This document shows positions 1 through 64,000 of a stretch of DNA of 64,000 nt, in pieces (the stretch's first letter is position 1; each line of letters opens with the position of its first letter). A model generated the notes under the pieces. The model was given only the letters and a program-made list of their open reading frames with translations. It searched no databases and was not told the DNA's origin. A program made the translations under genes and the position numbers. This DNA is from Azoarcus sp. Aa7 (GTDB lineage Bacteria > Pseudomonadota > Gammaproteobacteria > Burkholderiales > Rhodocyclaceae), in assembly GCF_014822185.1 (NCBI RefSeq), contig NZ_QVLR01000016.1:62001-126000 (forward strand), written 5' to 3'.

Positions 1-796
1 CGCGCTTGATGAGCGGCTCGGGCGACAGGTCGAGCACGAGGTCGAAGCGCCCTTCGCGGCGCGTGTCGGTGCGCGCAAAATCGATCGCGCCGACCGTGCC
101 GCAGGCCGTCACGCACGCGCGGTGCGCGCGGCAACGCGCAGCGTCGACCTGGTAGTCCCAGCCGATCGCGCCCTCGGGACAGGCGCGGATGCAGGCGTTG
201 CAGCGCACGCACAGGTCGAGGTCGATCGGGTTCTGCTGCGTCCACGCGGCGTCGAAGGCGCCGAGGTGGCCGGAGAGCGTCACGCCCGCGCCGGACCACA
301 CCGGGTAGCGCCGTTCGGTCGGCAGTTCGGCATCGCGGCTCGTGCCGGTGAGCAGCACGGACACGTCGAAGCGCGCCGCCAGCCGCTCGGCCCAGCCCAG
401 CGCCGCGCCCGCGTCGCCGACGATCAGCAGCTGATTGCCCGCCGCAAGCGTCACACCCACGACCGGTTCCGGTTCGGGCAGGGTCGCCGCGGCGATCAGC
501 GCCGCCATCTTCGGCGTCGCGCCCAGGCCTTCGGCGGACCAGCCGGCGCTCTCGCGCAGGTTGAAGAAATCGATGCGCGTCATCGGCCGCTCCGCCGCCA
601 CTTCGGCGAACAGCGCGGCCTCCTGCGTACAGCCGACGAGCACGTCGCCGCACGCGAGCGCAGACTCGAACTCGCCGATCTCCCGCCGGCACAGTTCGTG
701 ATGGACTTTGAGCGGCACCGTGCTGCCCGCCGCGAGGGCTTTTTCATCGACCGCGAAACTGCGGTTGCAGTCGCACAGCCTGAGCTGTCTCTCCAC
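1..796 (-). CDS. 4Fe-4S ferredoxin-type protein of a formate dehydrogenase neighbourhood (C-terminus beyond window)
   Basis: About 265 residues are visible and the gene runs off the left edge. The N-terminus has a CDC motif (LRLCDCN), followed by a region with hydrophobic strands resembling a dinucleotide-type fold (LLIVGDAGAALGW). A cysteine cluster follows, CVRCNACIRACPEG, and then a second set, CRAHRACVTACG, as in two-cluster ferredoxin domains. It probably carries electrons or binds clusters for a molybdenum formate dehydrogenase, because fdhD, mobA and the DUF3305/DUF3306 pair are next to it. The start is uncertain: GTG at 796 is used, and an in-frame GTG at 832 is possible. Neither has a strong ribosome-binding site. 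The 165 bp before the next gene holds an AAATG/CATTT inverted pair near 950-962 and no clear promoter. Confidence 0.75.
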   Translation of the reverse strand, partial: MERQLRLCDCNRSFAVDEKALAAGSTVPLKVHHELCRREIGEFESALACGDVLVGCTQEAALFAEVAAERPMTRIDFFNLRESAGWSAEGLGATPKMAALIAAATLPEPEPVVGVTLAAGNQLLIVGDAGAALGWAERLAARFDVSVLLTGTSRDAELPTERRYPVWSGAGVTLSGHLGAFDAAWTQQNPIDLDLCVRCNACIRACPEGAIGWDYQVDAARCRAHRACVTACGTVGAIDFARTDTRREGRFDLVLDLSPEPLIKR

Positions 797-36940: not shown

Positions 36941-37191
36941 AGCGACTCACGCTCCTGCACTGGCAACTGGTCCCGTCGGTCTTCTTCAAGCAGCCCGATG
37001 AATTCCTCGTCGAAACCGTTCAGCGCTTCGAGCAAGGCCCGACCACGATCGGCAGGCAAGGGATGAATGACGAGATCACCGGCTGCGTTGCGCGAGATTT
37101 CGACACGACTGACTGACAGGCGGAATTCCTGCGGGATGCGGACCGCCTGGCTGTTGCCATTCATGAAAACACGACTGACCTGGCCCGCCAT
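36937..37191 (-). CDS. vapB: VapB-type antitoxin
   Basis: 84 residues with an AbrB/SpoVT-type swapped-hairpin DNA-binding start: MAGQVSRVFMNGNSQAVRIPQEFRLS. The C-terminal half (LEALNGFDEEFIGLLEED) would wrap the VapC toxin. AGGAGG precedes the ATG. The pair normally represses its own promoter. Between 37202 and 37227 are two TGTGTGTAT copies separated by a few bases and a TATATT-like -10, a plausible operator. Confidence 0.9.
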   Translation of the reverse strand: MAGQVSRVFMNGNSQAVRIPQEFRLSVSRVEISRNAAGDLVIHPLPADRGRALLEALNGFDEEFIGLLEEDRRDQLPVQERESL

Positions 37192-37201
37192 GACGACCTC
37201 C

Positions 37202-37230
37202 TGTGTGTATTGATGTGTGTGTATATTAGA
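37202..37230. promoter_or_regulatory. vapBC promoter/operator candidate
   Basis: TGTGTGTAT at 37202-37210 recurs within 37214-37224, directly upstream of the vapB ribosome-binding site. The block ends in TATATTAGAT, which reads on the minus strand as a -10-like sequence. Toxin-antitoxin operons of this family are autorepressed at such sites. The assignment rests on position and repetition only. Confidence 0.35.
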
Positions 37231-37250
37231 TCAGTAAACGGGATTGTGAA

Positions 37251-37282
37251 CGTAAAAACGCCGACCCAAGGGATCGGCGTTT
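37251..37282 (-). terminator. Terminator after efp
   Basis: AAACGCCGA and TCGGCGTTT pair around an 8-nt loop (37256-37282). On the minus strand the stem is followed by a T5 run. It lies 41 bp after the efp stop and separates efp from vapB on the same strand. Confidence 0.8.
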
Positions 37283-37322
37283 CCTTGCCATGCTGCGACA
37301 GTGCGCCCCGCAGGGCGCGCAA

Positions 37323-37880
37323 TTACTTCACGCGGTTCTTGTACTCGTCGGTACGGGTGTCGATCTCGATCTTGTCACCGATTTCGACGAAGGCCGGTAC
37401 CGGCAGTTCGAAGCCGGTCGCGAGCTTGGCGGGCTTCATCACCTTGCCCGAGGTATCGCCCTTCACGGCGGGTTCAGTGTAGACCACTTCACGCACCACC
37501 GAGTTCGGCAGATCGACCGAGATCGCCTTGCCGTTGTAGAACACCACTTCGCACTGCAGGCCGTCTTCGAGGTACTTCAGCGCGTCGGTCATGTTCTCGG
37601 CTTCGACTTCGTACTGCTCGTAGTCGGTGTCCATGAACACGTACATCGGATCGGCGAAGTACGAGAAGGTCACTTCCTTCTTGTCGAGCTGGACGACTTC
37701 GAACTTGTCGTCGGCCTTGTACACCGACTCCGACGGGGCGCCGGTGAGCAGGTTCTTGAGCTTCATCTTCACGACCGCTGAGTTGCGGCCGGACTTGTTG
37801 TATTCGGCCTTCTGCACGACCAGCGGGTCGCTGCCAACCATGATGACGTTGCCGGAGCGGAGTTCCTGTGCGGTTTTCAT
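37323..37880 (-). CDS. efp: Elongation factor P (arginine-type)
   Basis: EF-P rescues ribosomes stalled at polyproline. The 185 residues start [17 protein letters not shown] with the three-domain OB-fold layout. The tip of domain I reads NKSGRNS with Arg32 where E. coli has a modified lysine. This Arg is the residue rhamnosylated by EarP, whose gene lies 58 bp upstream on the same strand. ATG 37880 marks the usual N-terminus. A terminator follows. Confidence 0.97.
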
Positions 37881-37938
37881 GCTGTTTCCTGATGTAGATC
37901 GGGCGCGGACATTTTGGCCGCACATTGTAAAAAACCGG

Positions 37939-39102
37939 TTATTTTACCGTGAGTTCTGAAAATTGCACCAGCGTCGACGCGAGATCCTGTTGGCCCGCGA
38001 GCCCGTCGGACCAGCGGCGCGTGTGCGGGGCAAGCCGTGGCAGCGCCGCGGCGAACGCGGGCCACGCGGCGGCAAGGCTCCCTTCTCCGTTCCACGCCTT
38101 CCAGAACGCACGCGTCGCCTCCGCGGCCGGCGCATCGAGGCCGGCGAGGTAACGCGCGAGGAAGGCGTCGAGCTTGTCGTGATGCACGGCCTCGTCCTGC
38201 TCGTAGATGTGCCACACGAAAGGCTGCGCGGCCCACTGCGCGCGCACGAAGGAATCTTCGCCGCGCACGAAGTTGAGCTCGCACGCCCACAGCAGGCGGT
38301 CGTAGTCGGCGGCGTCGAGGAAAGGCAGGACCACGGCCCTCAGGCCGCCCGCAGCCAGGATCTCGCCCGCCTGCGCGTTCCCGCGGCCGAAGAGGCGCAG
38401 CACGTCGCCGAGCACGCGGCCTTCGGGCACCAGCAGCAGGGTCGGGCATGGCGCTTCGGCCCACAGGCGCAGCAGCTCCGGCAGCTGCGGCTGCTCGTAG
38501 GCGAACAGCGACACGAGGCGCGCGCCCTCCGGCACCGCCGGAATGCCGAGGCCGGCAAGCCAGTCGCGCCGCGCGGCCGCATCGCCCCGGAAACGCTCGC
38601 GCGCCGCGATCAGGCCCTTTTCGCGCAGCAGGCCGCCGGTGCGCGGCGTGAAGCCGGGAAAGCAGAAACGCTTGGTCAGCGGCAGGCGCGGATGCGGCGA
38701 AGTCAGGCCGTGGCAGCCTTCGACCCAGTCCTCGGCCGACAGGTATTCGAGGTTGATCCACGGCGGCCGCGGCATACCGGCCGCCATCGCCGCGACGTAG
38801 GACGCAGGCGGCTCGCAGGCGAAGGCCTCGACGACGGCGCGCGCCGGCAGCACGTCGGGGAAGGGCTCGCACCAGCGGCGCACTTCGACGCCTTCCGCGC
38901 GCAGCGAATCGCCCGCTTCCGCGGCGGCCGGACACAGGCGCGCGAAGGTCTCCCAGTCGTCCACCCACAGCCTGACCGAGCACCCATGGTCATGCGCCAA
39001 TGCCTTGGCAAGCCGCCAGCAGACACCGATATCCCCGAAGTTATCCACAACCCGGCAGAAGATGTCCCAGTCGAAAACGGACGGGGCGTCGGAAGGGCTC
39101 AT
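37939..39102 (-). CDS. earP: EarP, EF-P arginine rhamnosyltransferase
   Basis: 387 residues. EarP transfers rhamnose from dTDP-rhamnose to Arg32 of EF-P. The N-terminal motif [21 protein letters not shown] includes the conserved catalytic aspartates (Asp20 and Asp24 here). The C-terminal donor region has [34 protein letters not shown] 39102 is chosen as the start nearest the conserved motif; an in-frame start further up would cross into repeat DNA. It is immediately upstream of efp, the pair forming one functional unit. Confidence 0.95.
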
Positions 39103-39103
39103 G

Positions 39104-39334
39104 GCAGTGGACAAGTGCGGGAAAAGGGCAGGGATGCTTTGTGGGAAAAGGGCTGGATCGGAATGGGCCGGAAAACTGGCCACAATCGACACACAGGTGA
39201 ACCCGGGGCTTATCTACGGACTTCTACCGTCCCGGAGTGCCTGCCGGCACAGGCGAAGCCGGACTTATCCACAGAAAACGCGACACTATATATATCTTTA
39301 TCTTTTATTTAAAACTAAATACTAAAAGCAAAAC
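39104..39334. repeat. Origin-like repeat, copy A
   Basis: A 231-bp unit upstream of earP, recurring at 39637-39869. It contains DnaA-box-like 9-mers: reverse box at 39107-39114 (one mismatch to GTGGATAA), TTATCTACG at 39210-39218 and perfect TTATCCACA at 39265-39273. A CTTTGTGGGAAAA block lies near 39138. The unit ends in an AT-rich tract at about 39281-39330 (TATATATATC, CTTTATCTTTTATTTAAAA). Order and spacing match copy B. It begins at the earP start. No gene is seen in it. Confidence 0.75.
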
Positions 39335-39370
39335 CCCAAACCCCGGCGGCAGGGCAATCGCACGAACTTT

Positions 39371-39452
39371 CGTAAGGCAGGATGAAATCCCGCCGCGCAT
39401 CGGACGAGTGCGCAACCTGGCGGTGATTGGCGGGATTTCATCCCGCCCTACG
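39371..39452. repeat. MITE-like inverted repeat (GTAGGGCGG family), copy 1
   Basis: An 82-bp element with 24-nt arms, 22 of 24 paired. The arms start CGTAAGGCAGGATGAAATCC and end TTTCATCCCGCCCTACG. A further CGTAGGGCGGATGAAT at 39474-39489 looks like an isolated left end. Another member of the family sits at 48989-49085. The 39453-39636 remainder holds nothing recognisable. Confidence 0.75.
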
Positions 39453-39636
39453 CCAGTTGCCGAAGGCACGAATCGTAGGGCGGATGAATCACAGACCGAG
39501 TTGGCCAACTGCGCCACCTTGGACGGCACTTGACCGGGATAACAGGATCTACGTCCCTGTGTCCCTCGCAGCGGACTTGGCAGTGAACGCGGTTCTAGCC
39601 GACAACCCTGGCCGTTCCGTCTCCGAAGCGGGCTCC

Positions 39637-39869
39637 GCAGTGGATAAGTCCGTGGAGGAGCACAGGGAGACTTTGTGGGAAAGCACCCCAAAATCCCGAA
39701 CGGCCGAAACGGGTCACATTCGGTGCACAGGTGAACCGGGCACTTGTCTACGGGGTTCTACCGCGCCGAAGACATTGCAGGCATTGGCGGATCAGCACTT
39801 ATCCACAGAAATCTGTCCTCTATCTTCTTCTTTATCTTTTAAATTTAAAGAAATACAGAAGAACAAAAC
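39637..39869. repeat. Origin-like repeat, copy B
   Basis: The diverged second copy, 533-535 bp from copy A. It has AGTGGATAA at 39639-39647, CTTTGTGGGAAA near 39671, TTGTCTACG at 39744-39752 and perfect TTATCCACA at 39799-39807. An AT-rich tract follows at 39815-39865 (CTTTATCTTTTAAATTTAAA). The same order and similar spacing imply duplication of a functional block. From 39870 to 40019 there is no gene, only a G-rich stretch after the repeat. Confidence 0.75.
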
Positions 39870-40019
39870 ATGAGGCTGCGGGAAGCGGCCGGGGTGCCCC
39901 CGGAAAGGGGCGCTCCCCTCGAACCAGGGGAGCGGGGACTGCAGAGAGGGGGAAATGCACGGTGCGGAAACGGCGCTGCGGACGCAGCCCGTGCAGGATG
40001 GCCCGTTGCGGGCCGGTGT

Positions 40020-55708: not shown

Positions 55709-56107
55709 ATGGGCAATCATACTGCGTATCTGAGTGGTCTTTGCGTGCTCGCGAGCAGCATCGCTGCGTCCGGCGGAGCTGCCGCAACCGGCATCGAAAC
55801 GGTGTGGACGTGCTGGTACGACGGTTCGGCATCCGTGTTGTGCAGCCTGCTGACCGCGCCCCCACCGATGGACGAAACGTCCGCCGAATCCGCGGTACCG
55901 TGGCTTGTGCCGACGAGCGAGCGCATCCGCCGGCCGCTGCCGGCCATCGTGCATGTGATCAGCCAGGACCCTGCACAGTTCGCCAGCCGCACCGTGCGCA
56001 TCCCCCTGCACAACTACGCGCACAACATGGATGCGGTGGAGCAGCTTGCGGATGCGGTGATGTGCGGCGGGCGCGACGACTGCCGCGTGCAGTTCGAGCG
56101 CGGCTAG
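55709..56107 (+). CDS. Hypothetical protein with possible signal peptide
   Basis: 132 residues beginning MGNHTAYLSGLCVLASSIAA, which could be a signal peptide or membrane anchor. The rest has four cysteines (CWYDG, LCSLL, MCGGRDDC) and no motif I recognise. The C-terminal part (IPLHNYAHNMDAVEQLADAVMCGG) looks ordered. The gene ends by overlapping the convergent 56104-56580 gene by four bases. Its composition is close to that of the genome. Function unknown. Confidence 0.55.
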   Translation: MGNHTAYLSGLCVLASSIAASGGAAATGIETVWTCWYDGSASVLCSLLTAPPPMDETSAESAVPWLVPTSERIRRPLPAIVHVISQDPAQFASRTVRIPLHNYAHNMDAVEQLADAVMCGGRDDCRVQFERG

Positions 56108-56580
56108 TCGTCCGCGCGATACAGGGCATACACGCTCAGCAGTCCGAATCCCAGGATCAGCAGCCACTTCAGCGACGACGCAGCACCCGACACCGCGTAC
56201 AGCGGCGCCACCCCGAAGCGCGGTACCTCCGTGAGCCACCAGTGCAAGGCATTCTCCAGCGCGTCGAAGCACGCCGCGGCCGGCAGGAGCCACATCAGGA
56301 CGCGCCGGAAGGCAGGCCCAAGTGCGGCGGCCACGCCCGCGCGCGTCGCCCACAGATAGCCGAACAGCCCATACGCGAGCAGCAACGCGACGTCCGCCGG
56401 CAGGTGGCTGCGGTAGCGCGCGAGATCGGCCGGAGACCAGAAGTGGATGATCTGCCCGAAGGTCCTGGGCGTGAAGGCGAACTGGAGCGCCAGCACGCCG
56501 GGATCGAGGGGTGCGAGATACCAGAAGAGACCGGCACCGAGCGCCAGCGTGGTCAGGCCGGAGATCCATACGGCGCGCAT
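56104..56580 (-). CDS. Hypothetical multi-pass membrane protein
   Basis: 158 residues with four predicted membrane segments (TTLALGAGLFWYLA, VALLLAYGLFGYLW, VLMWLLPAAACFDALENAL, LKWLLILGFGLLSVYALY). ATG 56580 has AAAGG about seven bases upstream, so the start is chosen there rather than an upstream ATG. It matches no family I can name from sequence. No partner genes suggest a function. It converges with the preceding gene and overlaps its stop. Confidence 0.7.
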   Translation of the reverse strand: MRAVWISGLTTLALGAGLFWYLAPLDPGVLALQFAFTPRTFGQIIHFWSPADLARYRSHLPADVALLLAYGLFGYLWATRAGVAAALGPAFRRVLMWLLPAAACFDALENALHWWLTEVPRFGVAPLYAVSGAASSLKWLLILGFGLLSVYALYRADD

Positions 56581-56682
56581 CGCAGTACCTTTCTGTGAAG
56601 CTATCCAGGCGGCAATCAAGGACGGAGGTGCTGTCCAGTAAAGCGTACAACGATATCAGACCGCGTTACTACGGCTCCGGAT

Positions 56683-56731
56683 ATAACATATACTTTAACG
56701 AAGTCCGGTTTAACGGTAATGTTTATGTTAT
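56683..56731. promoter_or_regulatory. hipBA promoter/operator candidate
   Basis: An AT-rich upstream region has ATAACATA at 56683-56690 and its inverse TATGTTAT at 56724-56731, which runs into the hipB start codon. Between them TTTAACG occurs twice (56694-56700 and 56709-56715). Such paired sites fit autorepression by the HipB dimer. Confidence 0.5.
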
Positions 56732-57098
56732 GTCGAAATCGTCCCTAGCGCTCAGCTCCCTGCCTCCGGAGGTGACTGCGTCGCTGCAGGCCCTCGGGGA
56801 GCAGCTTGCGCTCGCACGCCTGCGGCGCAAGGAATCCCAGAAGCAGTGGGCGGGCCGCCTGGGGGTGTCCGCCCCGACCCTGATCCGGCTGGAAAAGGGC
56901 GATCCCTCGGTCAGCATGGGGGTGTATGCAACGGCACTGTGGCTGCTCGGACTGTCGGACGGCCTTGCCGAACTCGCCGAGCCGGGCAAGGACGTACGTG
57001 CACTGGAGGCCGACGTCCGTCAGGCAAGCCGGCTTCGCGCGACGAGGACGCGGACGGCGCGAGCGGCGCAGCTGGGCAGGAAGGGAGGGGAGCAATGA
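56730..57098 (+). CDS. hipB: HipB-like XRE antitoxin
   Basis: 122 residues. The XRE helix-turn-helix spans about 28-85: LGEQLALARLRRKESQKQWAGRLGVSAPTLIRLEKGDPSVSMGVYATALWLLG. A C-terminal basic tail (LRATRTRTARAAQLGRKGG) is consistent with interaction with toxin and DNA. The start ATG 56730 follows an AT-rich operator-like region. The stop overlaps the hipA start by ATGA, so antitoxin and toxin are coupled. Confidence 0.9.
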   Translation: MSKSSLALSSLPPEVTASLQALGEQLALARLRRKESQKQWAGRLGVSAPTLIRLEKGDPSVSMGVYATALWLLGLSDGLAELAEPGKDVRALEADVRQASRLRATRTRTARAAQLGRKGGEQ

Positions 57099-58315
57099 GC
57101 CAGCACGCCGCGCCGCCCGACACGCTCCATCTCTGGTACCTGGGCAAGCCGGATGCTCCCGTCCCGGTCGGCGAGCTCAATCTGGTCATGAACCGTCGCG
57201 GCGTGTCGTTGCGCTATGCGGAGGCCTGGCTCCGGCACGGCTTTGCGCTCAGCGAGGACCTCCCGCTCAGCGATGTCGAACATTTCCCGAAGGAAAAGGA
57301 TACGGCCGCCGGCGCGGTCGATGACGCCCGGCCGGACCGCTGGGGCGAGCGTGTGATCCGCCTCCTCGATCGTCCGCCGCGACTCTCCCTGCTGGAATTT
57401 CTGTATTACGCTGGCGATGACCGCTTCGGCGCGCTGGGGGTCTCGACTTCCGCGACGGCCTACCTCCCGCGCGAGATCGGACCCCTGCCGAAACTCGCCG
57501 ACGTCGAGGCCGTGCACGACGTGGTGCGCCGGGTCTTGGCGAAGGAGCCGGTCGACGAACGGCAACGGAAGCTGATCGCGCCGGGTGTGACGATGGGCGG
57601 CGCACGCCCGAAGGCCTTGTTTCAGCTCGAAGGCGAGGAGTGGGTCCTCAAGTTCGCCGAGGACGACCGGCCCGCGGAGCCCCTGATCGAGCATGCTGCG
57701 ATGACGCTGGCGGCCAAAGCGGGAGTCACCGTCGCCGAAACGCGACCCGTTTCATTCGGGAATGGCGTCGCCGTGGCGATCCGGCGTTTCGACCGCGAGG
57801 CAGGCCGACGTCTGCATGCGCTTTCCGCGAACGTTGCCCTGAAGGCCGCGGGCGTCGAACTGTCCTATCCCAACCTCGCCCTCCTGCTGCGGCGGCGTGG
57901 CGCCACCGACATCAACCGGACGCAGATGCATGAGCTGTTCCGGCGCCTGGTGTTCAATATCCTCATCGACAACACCGACGACCACGAGAAGAACCACGTT
58001 CTCCTAGTCCGGGCGGACCACCAGTATGTCCTCGCGCCGGCTTTCGACGTCCTGCCCATCGGGCAGTCACTCGGCTACCAGGCGATGGTGGTCGGAACAC
58101 GGGGCGCGGAATCGTCCGTCGAGAATGCGCTGACCGCGGCCGCGCAATACTGGCTGACGCCGCAAGGCGCATTGGCTGAAGCGCGCCGGGTGGCCCGGGC
58201 GGTCGACGCTTGGCGTGCGCACTTCGCCGCCGAGGGGGTTTCCGACGCCGTCATCGACGAGCTGGTCCTCCACATCGATCGGCCCTTCCTGCTGGAGCAG
58301 CGGCAAGCCCTGTAG
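57095..58315 (+). CDS. hipA: HipA-type serine/threonine kinase toxin
   Basis: 406 residues. HipA phosphorylates targets such as glutamyl-tRNA synthetase and induces dormancy. The N-terminal HipA domain has LGKPDAPVPVGELNLV and DVEHFPKEKDTAAGAVDDARPDRWGERV. The kinase domain has the G-loop VTMGGARPKALFQ (167-178), the Lys in EEWVLKFAED, the catalytic loop NILIDNTDDHEKNHVLL with Asp295 and Asn300, and metal-binding Asp318 in FDVLP. The length is close to that of E. coli HipA (440 residues). All key kinase residues are present. Confidence 0.92.
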   Translation: MSQHAAPPDTLHLWYLGKPDAPVPVGELNLVMNRRGVSLRYAEAWLRHGFALSEDLPLSDVEHFPKEKDTAAGAVDDARPDRWGERVIRLLDRPPRLSLLEFLYYAGDDRFGALGVSTSATAYLPREIGPLPKLADVEAVHDVVRRVLAKEPVDERQRKLIAPGVTMGGARPKALFQLEGEEWVLKFAEDDRPAEPLIEHAAMTLAAKAGVTVAETRPVSFGNGVAVAIRRFDREAGRRLHALSANVALKAAGVELSYPNLALLLRRRGATDINRTQMHELFRRLVFNILIDNTDDHEKNHVLLVRADHQYVLAPAFDVLPIGQSLGYQAMVVGTRGAESSVENALTAAAQYWLTPQGALAEARRVARAVDAWRAHFAAEGVSDAVIDELVLHIDRPFLLEQRQAL

Positions 58316-58593
58316 TTCGTGCCGATGAACCCAAGCCCGCAATGCTGGGTGGGTGAATCGTGGTCTGACCCGGTTTTCCTTCAATGTCATCGCTGGCGAA
58401 GCCAATGGCGTTCGCCGAATGGGTGACGAGGGCTGTCGCCGTTTTCCATCCGGACTGCCAGGCGACCAGCCGCACAGCAAACCGGCGATCTCAGAGATGG
58501 CTAGTCGCGGCGATCGACAAAAGCCCGTGTATGGCTTATCATCATGCGCTAATGAGGGTAGTTCCGCCCATATTTCGAATATTGCGATCAATA
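58316..58593. other. Region upstream of the methyltransferase
   Basis: 278 bp separate hipA from the methyltransferase ATG. It is less GC-rich towards its right end and holds no obvious gene; small open frames here lack a ribosome-binding site. An ATG at 58552 is in frame with the methyltransferase and would add 14 residues. A promoter is expected near 58530-58590. Confidence 0.5.
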
Positions 58594-59712
58594 ATGCCAA
58601 AAATCATAGACCTATTCGCAGGGGCTGGCGGACTGAGCCTAGGTGCAGCGCGTGCCGGATTCGAAGTCTCGGCTGCAGTGGAACTTGATAGTTTCGCAGC
58701 ACAAACGCACACGACAAATTTCCCTAACTCGATCCACATTTGCACGGACATTACGTCTTTAACTGGTGCGAAATTGTTATCGGAAGCCAATCTGAGGGCC
58801 GGCGAGGTAGATGGGCTTATAGGAGGCCCCCCCTGCCAGGGATTCAGCACCATCGGAAAGCGGGACGAAAATGATCGGCGAAACGACCTTTTCGGGCATT
58901 TTTTTCGCTTGGTTTCTGAGGTTCGCCCAGCATTTTTTTTAGCTGAAAACGTTCCTGGGATATTGGACCAGAAATACGATGGAATCCGGAATCGCGCCTT
59001 TCTTCAGCTAAGATCCGAATATCGCTTACTCGATCCCCTCATCGTAAAGGCCAATCTTTACGGTGCCCCGACGACTCGTACGCGTATTTTTTTTATCGGA
59101 TACCGACCCGGAAAATTCAAGCGAGGTCTTAGCATTGAGGAAATGGCGCCAGCTTCCGACGTTGAAGCAACAACGGTAGGCAAGGCCCTGGCAGGGCTAC
59201 CTCAACAGATCAATTCTGGCTGGATTACAGCGGCAGACGGGTGGCGTCCGATCGAATCGAGGGGAACCGGAAAATACTTCGAGAGAATTCAAAATGCCGT
59301 TCCGAACGGAATCGGAGAACCCCTTTCGTTGGCACGGTACCTTGAAAGAGGCTTCGTTTCGGGATGCATGGGAACACGCCACACCCCCGACGTAATTCGC
59401 CGCTTCGAAGCGCTTGCACACGGGGAGAAAGATTGGGTTTCGAAAGCTATTAGGCTTGACCCAAATGGCTATTGCCCGACGCTTAGAGCGGGGACGGCAA
59501 AAGACAAAGGTAGCTTCCAAGCGGTGCGGCCAATTCATTTCGACTCTCCGCGGGTAATTACACCAAGAGAAGCCGCTAGACTTCAGGGATTCCCCGATTG
59601 GTTCGTATTCCATGATACAAAATGGCATAGTTTCAGACAGATAGGGAATAGCGTCAGTCCGATAGTCGCCGAAGACATCCTAAAGAAGGTCTTTCAGAAC
59701 ATGACTCTCTGA
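58594..59712 (+). CDS. DNA (cytosine-5)-methyltransferase
   Basis: 372 residues with all m5C methyltransferase motifs. Motif I is IDLFAGAGGLSLG. Motif IV is GGPPCQGFS with catalytic Cys81. Motif VI is ENVPG (119-123), VIII is RTRIF and X is QIGNSVSP. The target-recognition region lies roughly 200-290. It methylates a specific double-stranded DNA site, presumably protecting the host from the endonuclease activity encoded opposite. Start: MPKIIDLF at 58594 fits family N-termini. The DNA is clearly more AT-rich than flanking genes, and the stop overlaps the convergent gene by 19 bp. Recognition sequence unknown. Confidence 0.95.
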   Translation: MPKIIDLFAGAGGLSLGAARAGFEVSAAVELDSFAAQTHTTNFPNSIHICTDITSLTGAKLLSEANLRAGEVDGLIGGPPCQGFSTIGKRDENDRRNDLFGHFFRLVSEVRPAFFLAENVPGILDQKYDGIRNRAFLQLRSEYRLLDPLIVKANLYGAPTTRTRIFFIGYRPGKFKRGLSIEEMAPASDVEATTVGKALAGLPQQINSGWITAADGWRPIESRGTGKYFERIQNAVPNGIGEPLSLARYLERGFVSGCMGTRHTPDVIRRFEALAHGEKDWVSKAIRLDPNGYCPTLRAGTAKDKGSFQAVRPIHFDSPRVITPREAARLQGFPDWFVFHDTKWHSFRQIGNSVSPIVAEDILKKVFQNMTL

Positions 59713-60704
59713 TAATTCGGGTAATACCGATAGTATTTCTTATAATTCTCGACCGCCTCAACAGATTCCCTATTATTTCTTCCAAAATTAAACCCGAGTT
59801 GGGTCAATATTTCTTCCGCTGAGCCTCCAGGTAATAGCCGATCGATCGAAATTTTCTCTTTAACGGTTAGTGCGGGGACGGAAATTTTATTGAAATTCTC
59901 CCAGTCCAGATTTTGGTATCCCCAATTATTAAGTCCTGTCTTATCGAGAAAATCATTCTTTTCGCCATCTCGAAGTACGATTACTGTAAACGTAAGCATC
60001 TGATGAGGTCCGTCCTGATATGCGCAGGAAAGCAGCGGCTGAATATAGACGCCTTCAGAAAGCCTTCTTCCGTCAAAAGCCGTCGTAATCGCATCGCGTG
60101 ACGCCCCGAGCAGCATTTTCGGAAAACGAATCGGGCTCAAATCATCCGGGGAGTACCCCGTCGGTAGAAAATCTCCAAGTCGCGTATCCAGTTGCTTGAA
60201 AAGCCGATCCCTTTTTTCGTCCACCGTCTCTTGTCGGCCGTCGTAATGATGGAGGCCAGGGCTCATTGCTTCCGGATTCGCGTTTAGCGTGACCTTTAAG
60301 ACGTCGCCAACCCTTAGTTTGACGACGAGTGCTTGAATTTCCTGCAACTGTTCTCTTAGCTCCTTCGCAGAAGCATAATCTAGCCAAATGATTGTCGGTG
60401 TTTCGGAGTTATATCGATCGATAAAATCCCCGCTCTTCTGGCGAAAATTCTGAATGCACCTCAACGGCAAGTTGAACGTTTGGCGCAGAAACGCCTGTTC
60501 GTCCATTTCTATGGATAACATTGAGCGAAGACCAAAATGGGAATGCAGCAGTTTGAAGTCCTCAAGAAAAGCCGCTCCAAAGCTTACGTACCTATAGTCC
60601 GGAATCGGAATGTACCGGTTCAAGCGAGTCAATAGATCGATAAAAAGCATCCGATCAACGGACTTGTTTTGTCGCATATGGTACGGGACATTCGCGCCGC
60701 TCAT
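59694..60704 (-). CDS. Unrecognised protein of the Vsr-GHKL cassette, possibly SAM-methyltransferase-like
   Basis: 336 residues from ATG 60704, which has AGGAG six bases upstream inside the end of the ATPase gene, so it is coupled to it. No family is recognised with certainty. Its first 120 residues resemble a Rossmann methyltransferase: YRYVSFGAAFLEDFKLL as a first strand with glycine, SIEMD (64-68) as the acidic end of the second strand and IIWLDYAS (105-112) as the fourth strand. There are no zinc or nuclease motifs I can see. The C-terminal two thirds (IYIQPLLSCAYQDGPHQMLTFTVIV and onward) is unfamiliar. Third gene of the operon; its stop overlaps the methyltransferase stop. Function unknown. 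Confidence 0.8.
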   Translation of the reverse strand: MSGANVPYHMRQNKSVDRMLFIDLLTRLNRYIPIPDYRYVSFGAAFLEDFKLLHSHFGLRSMLSIEMDEQAFLRQTFNLPLRCIQNFRQKSGDFIDRYNSETPTIIWLDYASAKELREQLQEIQALVVKLRVGDVLKVTLNANPEAMSPGLHHYDGRQETVDEKRDRLFKQLDTRLGDFLPTGYSPDDLSPIRFPKMLLGASRDAITTAFDGRRLSEGVYIQPLLSCAYQDGPHQMLTFTVIVLRDGEKNDFLDKTGLNNWGYQNLDWENFNKISVPALTVKEKISIDRLLPGGSAEEILTQLGFNFGRNNRESVEAVENYKKYYRYYPNYQRVMF

Positions 60705-60706
60705 TT

Positions 60707-62131
60707 CTAGCTCCTCGCTTTCTTCAGATAAGCGTCGAAACAAGCTTTCCCGACGTCGCCCGGGGCCACGTCCTCATCTTCGAAAAGATAGTATGCAACA
60801 TCCTTGATTTCGCTAAGGCTCTTACCAAATCGAATAATTTTTACCGGGTCATGCTCCTTCGGCACTGCTAACGAAGGTACATATTTTTTTTCGTCTATAC
60901 GATTCTGGACATTAGTCCAATCCAACGTCTTTTCCCCGAATAATAGATCCTCCATCTGAACGGGCTTCGCCCGTCCTGAGATCTGTCGTTCCGCCTCGAC
61001 GTTTCCTTTCCAAGTATTAGTATGATTCGTAAAACGCTTTAAACCGTCGCGCATATAATCTTTAATGTAAAGAAAAACATCCGAAGACGTATCAACGCCT
61101 CGCTTTGTGGTGGTGACGGGAAGTTTCCAAGCATCATTTGATCTGAAGACAACGACTCCGGCGATCCCGATGAATTGACTGTGATAGCTCGGTACGCCCG
61201 CCTCACCCCAACCAGTCAAACGGGTTTTGTCGTTGTAAACCACCACGCGATCATTGCAAATGATTGTCCAACCTGCGTCTTCTCTACTTCTCTTGGTTTT
61301 TTGCTCTTCGTCCAGCTCGTCGTCTGTTAGCATTTGCGAGTGAAAGCCGACCGCCATGCTAATCTCGACGCCATCCTTTACGGACCGATAGAGGTAGGGC
61401 TCGATCCGCTCGTCCTTCGGGCGATCGTCTTCGGACCACAGTAGGCTAAATTGTCTTGCGAAGATTTCTTCGTCATTTATGAAAACGCGAAATCCCTTTC
61501 TAATGATGAAACTAAAGTGATGAGAGACGAGGTTATATAGGTCCTTTCCAAAGGATGATACGCCCGACTCGGCAAAACGTTGCGCTATCCCCGTATTAAG
61601 CTGCGTTACGACTATTTCTGTCCCTAAATTTGGCCGGCGTGAATCGCGTATATTTTCTATATCGAGTTCCCAGTCGCTATCATCCGACATCCATTTCGGA
61701 GTGATGCTAACTGAAAATGCCCGTTCTTTCGTATAGGATTTGACGATCGCGTTTCTACCCATTTTAAAAATCGCGCGCTTCATCCCGATGCCGTACATGC
61801 CGACCGTTGGTATGTCTGCGTCTGCTTCGTCTTCCTCTTTTGGGCGACCCATCATGAATGCATAACGCCTAGCTAGGTCGAACGGGATGCCTCCACAATT
61901 GTCCTCAATGGAAAATCTGTCCGTTCCAAAGGAAATCTTCGCCCAGTAACCGGCGTAGGGCTTAGTCGCATCAGTTGGAGGCTTGCGTGTCCGTTGAACT
62001 CCATCGACGCAGTTATCCAGTAAGTCCAAAATGGCGTCCATAAGATCGATATCCCTAGTAAGCATATCGATAAAGAACCTCTTGGTTGGACCAGCCGCCG
62101 CTCGCTCTGAATTGATTTTTTTATTAGTCAT
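60707..62131 (-). CDS. GHKL ATPase (MutL/MORC/Hsp90-like) of a restriction-modification cassette
   Basis: 474 residues. The Bergerat ATP-binding fold is at the N-terminus. N-box LDLLDNCVDG (Asn40), G1 motif EDNCGGIPF (77-83) and G2 glycine loop VGMYGIGMKRAI (110-121). After a transducer-like middle (about 230-340) comes a helical C-terminal part. No nuclease, zinc or DNA-binding motif is recognised. Bacterial relatives of MutL and MORC are known from restriction-modification neighbourhoods, where they are thought to act as ATP-driven clamps with a methyltransferase or nuclease. It overlaps the Vsr stop by ATGA, so it is translated with it. Confidence 0.85.
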   Translation of the reverse strand: MTNKKINSERAAAGPTKRFFIDMLTRDIDLMDAILDLLDNCVDGVQRTRKPPTDATKPYAGYWAKISFGTDRFSIEDNCGGIPFDLARRYAFMMGRPKEEDEADADIPTVGMYGIGMKRAIFKMGRNAIVKSYTKERAFSVSITPKWMSDDSDWELDIENIRDSRRPNLGTEIVVTQLNTGIAQRFAESGVSSFGKDLYNLVSHHFSFIIRKGFRVFINDEEIFARQFSLLWSEDDRPKDERIEPYLYRSVKDGVEISMAVGFHSQMLTDDELDEEQKTKRSREDAGWTIICNDRVVVYNDKTRLTGWGEAGVPSYHSQFIGIAGVVVFRSNDAWKLPVTTTKRGVDTSSDVFLYIKDYMRDGLKRFTNHTNTWKGNVEAERQISGRAKPVQMEDLLFGEKTLDWTNVQNRIDEKKYVPSLAVPKEHDPVKIIRFGKSLSEIKDVAYYLFEDEDVAPGDVGKACFDAYLKKARS

Positions 62132-62538
62132 ACAAGCTCCAAAAATCTACGAATGCGGTCTTTAAGAAATTCCACATTTTTAAGTTCGCACTGCCAAATA
62201 ACAAGTACTGACCACCCAATCGAATTCAAAGTCGTTAGTACTAGTTCGTCTCGCCTTTTATTTTTTTCAATCTTACTAGACCAGAATTCGATATTGGATC
62301 GTGGTAGATTACCTTTCCCACAATCGTGGCCATGCCAGAAGCAGCCATGGACAAAAATGATCTTATTCTTGCCCGGAAACACGATATCCGGCTTCCCAGG
62401 AAGATCCTTTCGATGAAGTCGGTATCGATATCCCATCGAAAAAACTAACCTGCGAATCGTGAGCTCTGGCCGCGTGCTCGTGCTTCGTACGGCACGCATG
62501 ATATCGCTCCGCTTCTGTGGAGAAACACGGTCCGTCAT
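62128..62538 (-). CDS. vsr: Vsr-type very-short-patch endonuclease
   Basis: 136 residues. Vsr nicks DNA next to T:G mismatches arising from deaminated 5-methylcytosine. Here DIMRAVRSTSTRPEL, catalytic Asp51 in KPDIVFPGK, His64 and His69 in FVHGCFWHGHDC, and the PRSNIEFWSSKIEKNKRRD block are all present at the E. coli numbering. Residue 63, usually Thr, is Val. It heads the operon with the ATPase (ATGA overlap). As the methyltransferase is opposite, it may repair its mutagenic sites or act as the restriction nuclease. Confidence 0.93.
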   Translation of the reverse strand: MTDRVSPQKRSDIMRAVRSTSTRPELTIRRLVFSMGYRYRLHRKDLPGKPDIVFPGKNKIIFVHGCFWHGHDCGKGNLPRSNIEFWSSKIEKNKRRDELVLTTLNSIGWSVLVIWQCELKNVEFLKDRIRRFLELV

Positions 62539-62725
62539 CGCTGTTCAATTTCTCCTTAAGCCCTTATTCATCATATCGGCGTTCGATAGCTAATGTACGG
62601 GATTAAGCCGGCGCAGCTTTGCCGTAAGCATAACATCTTGCGAATTAGGCTGCAGGGAGTGGAAGATCGATCCTGGTGATCGGGAGCGCCGGTCATGCCG
62701 ACGAGGATATGGAGGAACCGAGAAT

Positions 62726-62753
62726 AAAAAAAAGCTCCGAAAGGAGCTTTTTT
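62726..62753. terminator. Strong bidirectional terminator after gyrB
   Basis: AAAAAAAGCTCC-GAAA-GGAGCTTTTTT forms a short stem flanked by A7 and T6. It lies 25 bp after the gyrB stop on the minus strand and about 190 bp from the Vsr start. The 62539-62725 interval holds no gene and probably the promoter of the Vsr operon. Confidence 0.9.
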
Positions 62754-62777
62754 CATTACCTGCGCCACCCGACAGCA

Positions 62778-64000
<1,223 letters not shown>

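What the first reader, a model, noticed from the sequence alone, without database searches (positions are those of the whole stretch)
58594..62538. Candidate ATPase-assisted restriction-modification or defence cassette: m5C methyltransferase facing Vsr - GHKL ATPase - unknown methyltransferase-like protein
Seen: a full m5C methyltransferase on the + strand. On the minus strand, a Vsr-type endonuclease overlaps a GHKL ATPase (ATGA), which is followed after 2 bp by a 336-residue unknown. The two transcription units converge and share 19 bp. The cassette sits beside HipBA and is far more AT-rich than the chromosome. Known: MutL/MORC-type GHKL ATPases occur in restriction-modification neighbourhoods, and Vsr repairs deamination at 5-methylcytosine. 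Inference: the four proteins form one system in which the ATPase and the unknown protein couple recognition or methylation to cleavage. I do not recognise this exact combination as a named system.
Basis: partly seen in the sequence, partly recalled or inferred. Interest (0 to 1): 0.88.

Follow-up and report, generated by a model that had tools for sequence, protein, structure and literature searches.

The report
Bacterial MORC–methyltransferase defence cassette
A bacterium has inserted next to its gyrase gene a small mobile gene set that pairs a bacterial cousin of the eukaryotic silencing ATPase MORC with an uncharacterised methyltransferase-like protein and a DNA-marking enzyme, a recurring, apparently unnamed and probably anti-virus system that often travels in prophages and has no obvious DNA-cutting enzyme of its own.

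Summary
In detail: C5-MTase facing Vsr–GHKL–PF20553, with the overlaps described. The "unknown" is Pfam Methyltransf_35 (here MTF35). The ATPase carries the published motif of prokaryotic MORC proteins. GHKL and MTF35 are a near-obligate pair: 147 of 149 loci fetched by ATPase searches (a biased, top-scoring sample) spanning 16 named phylum-level groups. A C5-MTase lies within 4 kb in 140 of 149; Vsr in only 41. So the core is a three-gene unit and Vsr is optional. In 21 viral loci (some near-identical) the trio sits between P2-type portal and gpA genes, a known anti-phage hotspot; about 219 of 5,426 complete E. coli genomes carry it (many clonal). No restriction nuclease is regularly found beside it, though some copies have one. 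The pair also appears inside DISARM (2 genomes) and beside an SNF2 helicase (1). In the window it is a low-GC insertion beside gyrB, with HipBA, absent from 16 of 16 same-genus genomes. Best reading: a mobile restriction-like defence in which C5-MTase marks self and MORC–MTF35 acts on unmarked DNA. Mechanism is inferred. MORC–methylase neighbourhoods were reported in 2008; I found no description of this trio, but supplements were unreadable.

The parts
58594..59712 (+). C5-cytosine DNA methyltransferase (372 aa): proposed self-marking subunit
   Evidence: PF00145 2.7e-60, TIGR00675 7.9e-45; PCQ80, ENV118, RTR162, GNSV351; target-recognition region more variable than catalytic part among relatives
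59694..60704 (-). MTF35: Methyltransf_35 protein (336 aa), class I methyltransferase fold, near-obligate partner of the ATPase
   Evidence: PF20553 6.4e-86; AF2 pLDDT 93.7; Foldseek to class I SAM methyltransferases, best Trm1 3axs E 1.4e-7, TM 0.44 by query length
60707..62131 (-). Prokaryotic MORC-type GHKL ATPase (474 aa)
   Evidence: PF13589 4.4e-7; MORC motif GhXhhpXXRhl as GWTIICNDRVV at residue 287; LDLLDNCVDG, DNCGG, GMYGIGMKRA, TTTKR; fold search Hsp90, GyrB, SMCHD1, MORC3, MORC2
62128..62538 (-). Vsr mismatch endonuclease (136 aa): optional accessory
   Evidence: PF03852 1.1e-31, TIGR00632 4.8e-45; present in a minority of relatives
59694..59712 (.). 19-bp tail-to-tail overlap of C5-MTase and MTF35 genes
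   Evidence: 67 of 80 convergent loci overlap, window included
56620..62727 (.). Strain-specific insertion (HipBA plus cassette) between gyrB and the gene at 56104-56619
   Evidence: 3 of 3 relatives with both flanks in view (L181, L182, L184, of five regions fetched) carry 6.0-7.3 kb here that does not match 56620-62727; PF20553 absent from 16 of 16 same-genus genomes
56511..57098 (+). HipB-like HTH protein (start uncertain), neighbour in the same insertion, not part of the system
   Evidence: PF13560 3e-07
57095..58315 (+). HipA-like kinase (start inferred), neighbour, not part of the system
   Evidence: PF07804 6.4e-41 and PF13657, found on ORF 56846-58315

Best explanation
A mobile, restriction-like anti-phage or anti-mobile-element module. 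The C5-methyltransferase marks the host's DNA. A fixed effector pair, a bacterial MORC-type GHKL ATPase plus the methyltransferase-fold protein MTF35, engages DNA lacking the mark, the ATPase closing as an ATP-dependent dimeric clamp that blocks replication or expression of that DNA. The Vsr gene, present in a minority of copies, repairs T:G mismatches left by deamination of the 5-methylcytosines. Shown here by sequence and context: gene identity, the conserved trio, co-divergence of MORC and MTF35, repeated rearrangement without separation, the prophage hotspot position, no regularly found nuclease neighbour. Inferred: defence activity, self/non-self logic, clamp mechanism, what MTF35 binds or methylates, and Vsr's role (from established Vsr biology, recalled).
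For: Co-occurrence: 78 of 80 genome loci and 69 of 69 viral loci fetched by the ATPase search have MTF35; a C5 gene within 4 kb in 72 of 80 and 68 of 69. MTF35-anchored searches: GHKL adjacent in 7 of 7 genomes with PF20553, one of them with broken genes, and GHKL present in 2 of 2 plasmid records and 1 of 1 phage record matched (in one plasmid an IS66-like element lies between). Mantel r 0.78 for MORC-MTF35 and 0.39 for MORC-C5 against permutation maxima 0.17 and 0.24. At least 26 changes of C5 placement or absence among 101 labelled rows of a 103-row tree. MORC motif at the aligned position in 107 of 112 non-redundant ATPases, shuffled rate 0.005. In 21 viral loci the trio lies between P2-type portal and gpA genes, the slot of old/tin and of several tested anti-phage systems (PMC9122126, section 10); two annotated E. 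coli examples show the trio alone in that slot and one shows it in a lambdoid prophage. A filamentous Pf phage also carries it. Neighbour ORFs of genome loci include Gabija-, MADS-, PD-Lambda-5- and DRT-type PADLOC hits, and an integrase family recurs in 10 genome and 4 viral loci.
Against: No phage challenge exists. Prophage hotspots also carry non-defence cargo (partition genes and others). Eight of 80 genome loci lack a C5 gene within 4 kb: three lie near a contig end (L016, L020, L073), five have more flank in view (L019, L022, L023, L024, L035), and seven of the eight are cyanobacterial by title; so C5 is not strictly required nearby. PADLOC has no hit for MORC or MTF35 in the window. Nuclease genes do sit in some loci: an HNH_2 family in 5 of 80 genome and 1 of 69 viral loci, NgoMIV in L049, EcoRII in L082, a REase family in L006, L029 and L140, and HsdR-like type I proteins near L039 and L043 (2 of 11 neighbour ORFs over 900 aa). 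The window ATPase has Asp36 (invariant in 46 aligned rows) where, from recall, GHKL ATPases have the catalytic Glu, so hydrolysis may be slow. The ATPase sample was drawn with a profile built from MTF35-linked members and only the best 80 of 394 were kept.
Confidence: 0.6

Rival explanations
1. Helper of ordinary restriction: MORC-MTF35 loops or remodels DNA for a separate, often unlinked restriction nuclease, as proposed for MORC/paraMORC genes in 2008; the C5 gene is the cognate methylase.
For: Iyer et al. 2008 model. The pair does occur with nuclease or helicase systems: DISARM in L004 and L189, SNF2 helicase plus NOV_C protein in L192, C5-REase-Vsr in S. meliloti, HNH_2 proteins in 6 loci, HsdR-like proteins near two.
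Against: No nuclease family recurs in more than 6 of 149 loci apart from Vsr (clusters; scans). The P2 slot holds little but the trio: 14 of 21 copies have no extra stop-to-stop ORF of 100 aa or more; in the other 7 the largest extras are 103-185 aa, apart from a 237-aa piece that is the frameshifted MTF35.
Confidence: 0.2
2. Self-protection or anti-restriction cargo: the C5 enzyme modifies phage or island DNA against host nucleases, and MORC-MTF35 helps modification or silences genes.
For: Frequent in viral contigs and in a filamentous phage; phages commonly carry orphan methylases (recalled).
Against: Also found in genome contigs of 16 named phylum-level groups; the MORC-MTF35 pair persists without a nearby C5 in cyanobacterial loci and joins DISARM, a defence system.
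Confidence: 0.12
3. Abortive-infection system: MTF35 is an effector methyltransferase acting on tRNA or another cell target, gated by the MORC ATPase and restrained by DNA methylation.
For: Best fold match of MTF35 is a tRNA methyltransferase (Trm1); invariant basic residues R11, K14, R18, R74 could bind nucleic acid.
Against: Class I methyltransferase matches are broad and weak (TM 0.26-0.44 by query length in the 50 listed); no target evidence; motif I is degenerate in the window copy (SFGAA).
Confidence: 0.1
4. Chance neighbourhood: a Dcm/Vsr pair next to an unrelated two-gene operon.
For: C5 genes are common in bacteria (the family control search found C5 in 10 of 14 well-known genomes).
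Against: 148 of 150 places have adjacent GHKL-MTF35, 140 of 149 loci a C5 gene within 4 kb, in 16 named phylum-level groups.
Confidence: 0.02

Closest known systems
Prokaryotic MORC restriction-modification neighbourhoods (Iyer, Abhiman, Aravind 2008, PMC2292703)
   Same: GHKL+S5 ATPase with the MORC motif; cytosine methylases and Vsr nearby; a helicase-free minority class with DNA methylases or REs is mentioned
   Different: The near-obligate MTF35 partner, the self-contained trio and the prophage-slot distribution are not in the text I saw (parts 1-3 of 4 and passages; figures not held); SFII helicases are in about 70 percent of the neighbourhoods there and absent from the window cassette
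HEF_HK / RR-like systems (Bellieny-Rabelo 2021, PMC8011034; passages and one section seen)
   Same: HATPase_c_3 protein plus a partner gene next to C5-MTase and Vsr
   Different: Window ATPase shows no HATPase_c or HEF_HK hit; the partner is PF20553, not Response_reg_2
DISARM
   Same: Methylation-linked defence; MORC-MTF35 sits inside DISARM operons in a Microvirga terrae plasmid and in G115
   Different: Window cassette and its direct neighbours hold no Drm gene; DISARM is usually listed without this pair (recalled)
Type II R-M with V gene (C5-MTase + Vsr)
   Same: C5-MTase and Vsr
   Different: No cognate restriction endonuclease in the cassette; an ATPase pair instead
Eukaryotic MORC (MORC2, MORC3)
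   Same: Shared motif, GHKL-transducer fold; methylation-linked silencing of elements (starts of abstracts in the listing)
   Different: No further Pfam domain matched; sequence match to solved MORC structures is weak (E 0.08)

Membership tests
Prokaryotic MORC | GHKL ATP-binding motifs | tested here: met
   PF13589; LDLLDNCVDG, DNCGG, GMYGIGMKRA
Prokaryotic MORC | GhXhhpXXRhl motif in the S5 domain | tested here: met
   GWTIICNDRVV at 287; 107 of 112 relatives at the aligned position
Prokaryotic MORC | GHKL followed by S5/transducer fold | tested here: met
   AF2 model pLDDT 89.7 aligns over about 390-500 columns to Hsp90, GyrB, SMCHD1, MORC3, MORC2, TM 0.36-0.51 by query length
Prokaryotic MORC | Groups with MORCs rather than paraMORCs in a tree | not tested
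   the reference sequences of the 2008 paper were not available
Methyltransf_35 (PF20553) | Profile match over cut-off, full length | tested here: met
   288.9 bits against cut-off 27, residues 1-335
Active SAM methyltransferase | Motif I GxG and SAM binding | tested here: inconclusive
   G41 and G43 in 77 of 108 relatives; window has S41, G43; residue 66 is E in 102 and D in 6, D109 in 107 of 108; binding not testable here
HEF_HK two-component-like system | HEF_HK domain and Response_reg_2 partner | tested here: not met
   Pfam scan to E 1 shows only HATPase_c_3 and Methyltransf_35
Type II restriction-modification | Cognate restriction endonuclease beside the methylase | tested here: not met
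   no endonuclease but Vsr among the window cassette and HipBA; none regular among neighbour ORFs of relatives
DISARM | DrmA, DrmB, DrmC | tested here: not met
   window neighbours are HipBA and gyrB; with the Microvirga proteins as queries, hits at E 1e-10 or better only in L003 and L004 and then L189
[not shown]
   window ATPase: no PADLOC hit; 4 of 46 relatives match MzaB, best E 0.0011
Anti-phage defence system | Protection against phage | not testable with these tools
   only context is available

The most novel reading that the evidence does not exclude
Nuclease-free restriction: a bacterial MORC ATPase and MTF35 recognise DNA lacking a methyl mark and topologically clamp and compact it, silencing invaders without cutting. 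The pair is a plug-in module that also serves DISARM and SNF2-helicase systems, and may resemble the ancestral form of eukaryotic MORC-based, methylation-linked transposon silencing.
Probability: 0.25. Interest if true: 0.9.

Novelty: new variant of a known kind. Interest (0 to 1): 0.72.

Why it matters
Bacterial MORC proteins were predicted in 2008 to work in restriction systems; a full-text search for bacterial or prokaryotic MORC listed only that paper and two others, neither of which by title and abstract start tests one. This trio is small, self-contained and present in enterobacterial prophages, so the function of a prokaryotic MORC can be tested directly in a laboratory E. coli strain. 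If it restricts DNA without a nuclease, that would be a different way of doing restriction and would bear on where eukaryotic MORC silencing came from. Even if it proves ordinary, PF20553 and its MORC partner mark a system that is annotated only gene by gene in 16 named phylum-level groups and about 4 percent of complete E. coli genomes.

Tried and rejected
Rejected: Vsr as a core subunit. Rejected: HipBA as part of the system; it only shares the insertion. Rejected: HEF_HK/RR-like system. Rejected: parE, my first guess for the flanking gene; it is gyrB. Tested and not supported: that prophage copies lack Vsr because they are mobile; the raw table gives p 0.026 (33 of 74 genome rows, window included, and 6 of 29 viral rows with Vsr), but independent pairs on the tree give no support. 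Target-recognition swapping: the C5 target region averages 0.49-0.51 identity where catalytic parts average 0.69-0.74 in ATPase pairs at 55-75 percent identity, but only 4 of 266 pairs with ATPase identity above 0.65 fall below 0.4, and two of these involve a C5 gene at L049 that may belong to an adjacent NgoMIV system. Led nowhere: sequence searches of solved structures for MTF35, promoter scan (2 found, 5.6 expected) and terminator scan (9 found, 5.0 expected), flanking direct repeats (one weak pair), the search for related loci with the MTF35 alignment on genome contigs. Paper searches in whose listings I saw no description of the trio; supplements, including Rousset Table S5B which may list it, could not be read. 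Library searches without a hit for MORC or MTF35 of the window: PADLOC, NCBIfam.

What was seen of papers: PMC2292703 parts 1-3 of 4 of the text and passages; PMC8011034 passages and one section; PMC9122126 passages and section 10; PMC9519451 one passage; PMC11341870 one passage; PMC12458937 outline and abstract, plus a term search with no occurrence; all others in listings only.
Full report
WHAT IS THERE. On the plus strand there is a C5-cytosine methyltransferase (58594-59712; PF00145). On the minus strand lie Vsr (62128-62538), a GHKL ATPase (60707-62131) and a 336-aa protein (59694-60704). The last is not an unknown: it matches Pfam PF20553, Methyltransf_35, over its whole length (6.4e-86). 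I call it MTF35. The 19-bp tail-to-tail overlap, the 2-bp gap and the 4-bp overlap are all real. GC is 0.48-0.50 over 59-63 kb against 0.65-0.73 in most other 1-kb steps.

AN INSERTION. The gene from 62778 on is gyrB. In the 15 same-genus loci fetched, homology stops at 62727-62778. Of five longer relative regions fetched, three show both flanks; in these, 56602/56620-62727 is replaced by 6.0-7.3 kb that does not match it (L181, L182, L184). By eye the replacing DNA holds transposase-, YcaO- and sulfatase-like genes (names from recall, no family search). PF20553 is absent from 16 of 16 same-genus genomes. So HipBA and the cassette were acquired together or stepwise at a variable site.

THE ATPASE IS MORC-LIKE. 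Iyer et al. 2008 (PMC2292703; parts 1-3 of 4 and passages) unify MORC proteins by the motif GhXhhpXXRhl in the S5 domain. The window ATPase has GWTIICNDRVV at residue 287, and 107 of 112 non-redundant relatives match at the aligned position; shuffled sequences match at a rate of 0.005. The AF2 model (pLDDT 89.7) aligns to Hsp90, GyrB, SMCHD1, MORC3 and MORC2; Hsp90 and GyrB rank at least as high as MORC, so the fold alone does not single out MORC. The best profile hits among solved sequences are MORC3 and MORC4, weak (E 0.08-0.39). No tree against the 2008 references could be built. Position 36, where from recall GHKL enzymes use Glu, is Asp in all 46 aligned rows.

MTF35. The model is confident (pLDDT 93.7) and its fold is that of class I SAM methyltransferases; the best match is tRNA methyltransferase Trm1 (E 1.4e-7, TM 0.44 by query length), with many others. 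Invariant residues in 56 aligned rows include R11, K14, R18, Y39, D49, R74, W107, D109, D231, E283 and P329. G41 and G43 of motif I are both Gly in 77 of 108 relatives; the window has Ser at 41. Whether it binds SAM or methylates anything is unknown.

CO-OCCURRENCE. A profile of six ATPases (all MTF35-linked, so a biased seed) found 394 relatives in genome contigs, of which the best 80 were kept, and 69 in viral contigs. MTF35 is present in 78 of 80 and 69 of 69; on one strand and adjacent in 148 of 150 places with the window. The exceptions are L029 and L035. A C5 gene lies within 4 kb in 72 of 80 and 68 of 69; Vsr in 33 of 80 and 8 of 69. The 80 loci span 16 named phylum-level groups, 4 loci unassigned. 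Anchoring on MTF35 instead, PF20553 occurs in 2 of 200 relatives, 3 of 369 class and 5 of 398 phylum genomes (samples overlap; each count includes the window's own): seven genomes in all, and all seven have the ATPase next door. Four have C5 (window included), one is DISARM, one is beside an SNF2 helicase, one has broken MORC and MTF35 genes and no C5 in the 11 kb seen.

THE TRIO HOLDS TOGETHER THROUGH REARRANGEMENT. Among 151 places (80+69 loci, the window, and L007, which appears to be the contig of L030) 68 have GHKL-MTF35 facing C5 without Vsr and 23 have C5-GHKL-MTF35 in one direction without Vsr; the window's four-gene order occurs in 6 including itself. On a 103-row ATPase tree (quick method, six long branches) the placement or absence of C5 changes at least 26 times among 101 labelled rows and Vsr presence at least 21 times. 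Of 80 convergent loci, 67 overlap tail to tail. Distances co-vary strongly for MORC and MTF35 (Mantel 0.78) and less for C5 (0.39), so the pair is fixed and the methylase more exchangeable.

WHERE IT TRAVELS. In 21 viral loci (some near-identical) the trio lies between a P2-type portal gene and the gpA replication gene (PHROG assignments on representatives; positions). Rousset et al. 2022 (PMC9122126; section 10 and passages) show this slot to be a hotspot of anti-phage systems, home of old and tin, though some cargo there is not defensive. In E. coli strains EC77 and 7/2 RefSeq annotates portal, ATP-binding protein, O-methyltransferase, DNA cytosine methyltransferase, replication endonuclease, with no other annotated gene between. 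In ST2747 the same trio sits in a lambdoid prophage. Near-identical trios (at least 80 percent of the query) occur in 2, 45 and 172 of 5,426 complete E. coli genomes, 219 in all if the sets do not overlap, consistent with 220 genomes matched by the distant search; many are close clones. A filamentous Pseudomonas phage, PfAC20, also carries it. Only 1 of 50,697 phage records and 2 of 72,556 plasmid records matched MTF35 or MORC of the window, so in those collections it is rare.

NO REGULAR NUCLEASE. Clustering of neighbour ORFs (90 aa or more, within 6 kb of the ATPase) gives, for genome loci, an integrase family (10 genome, 4 viral loci) and an HNH_2 family (5 genome, 1 viral) as the most recurrent. 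Of 143 nearest neighbours of 100-900 aa scanned, HATPase_c_3 is in 6, integrase in 5, HNH_2 in 4, HNH_5 in 2; PADLOC hits include HNH, Gabija, MADS, PD-Lambda-5 and DRT-type models, each in 2-4 (both tables show only the first 25 families). Of the 11 neighbours over 900 aa two are HsdR-like restriction proteins (L039, L043) and the others are housekeeping, phage, relaxase or repeat proteins. Some loci hold type II nucleases (NgoMIV, EcoRII, an unnamed type II family). In the P2 slot, 14 of 21 copies have no extra stop-to-stop ORF of 100 aa or more; in the rest the extras are 103-185 aa, apart from one 237-aa piece of a frameshifted MTF35. ORFs were called mechanically: short genes can be missed and some long ORFs are shadows (in L034 a chosen ORF overlaps a pyruvate dehydrogenase gene on the other strand).

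OTHER PARTNERS OF THE PAIR. In Microvirga terrae plasmid pR24_2 the order is drmD, MmeI-like, ATPase, O-methyltransferase, drmA, DUF1998 gene, drmC. Genome G115 has matches to all seven, with a further stretch between MmeI and the ATPase (L189). G841 pairs MORC-MTF35 with a divergent set of an unassigned gene, an SNF2-related helicase and a NOV_C protein. This suggests a plug-in pair used with several methylation- or helicase-based systems.

INTERPRETATION. The most economical reading is a mobile restriction-like defence: C5 marks self, MORC-MTF35 acts on unmarked DNA, Vsr limits mutation from deaminated 5-methylcytosine. The clamp step is inferred from the known behaviour of MORC and GHKL dimers (recalled; one abstract in the listing mentions DNA entrapment by C. 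elegans MORC-1). The C5 target-recognition region varies more than its catalytic part, as expected if sites differ between copies while the effector pair stays fixed; that would mean the effector reads the mark or the methylase rather than its own sequence. This is an inference, and near-identical effectors with very different target regions were few (4 of 266 pairs).

NOVELTY. MORC genes with methylases and Vsr, including a helicase-free minority, were reported in 2008. I saw no description of the MORC-MTF35-C5 trio in the listings of ten full-text searches, and no PADLOC or NCBIfam match for its two unusual proteins. The library lacks most subscription papers and supplements could not be opened. 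I file it as a new variant of a known kind.

Noticed in passing
L004:1-15586 (Microvirga terrae plasmid pR24_2) and L189:2-16667 (genome G115): MORC-MTF35 pair embedded between MmeI-like and drmA genes of DISARM operons.
   Followed up: partly
L192:5780-12345 (genome G841): MORC-MTF35 divergent from an unassigned protein, an SNF2-related helicase and a NOV_C protein; possible further system type.
   Followed up: partly
L006:1671-11975 (Sinorhizobium meliloti psymA): MTF35 gene separated from the ATPase by what looks like an IS66 transposase (by eye), with REase, C5 and Vsr genes convergent.
   Followed up: partly
L017:13755-15446, L025:1021-2853, L027:8222-9862, L031:12999-14744, L056:195-1892, L079:959-2692: A second, longer GHKL protein beside the trio, perhaps the paraMORC1 companion of the 2008 paper; of the four scanned (L017, L027, L031, L056) all match HATPase_c_3 and one has a Hypoth_Ymh C-terminal domain.
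   Followed up: partly
window 56620-62727: Variable site directly downstream of gyrB; relatives carry other genes there.
   Followed up: partly
window 37001-38000 and 39001-40000: Two other GC dips (0.57) in a background of about 0.69.
   Followed up: no
L034, L021, L065 and other loci: Vsr position and strand relative to the trio vary widely, suggesting repeated independent capture.
   Followed up: partly
L047, L055, L085: A HhH-GPD base-excision repair type protein recurs beside the trio in three loci (cluster; one member scanned); perhaps another answer to deaminated 5-methylcytosine.
   Followed up: no
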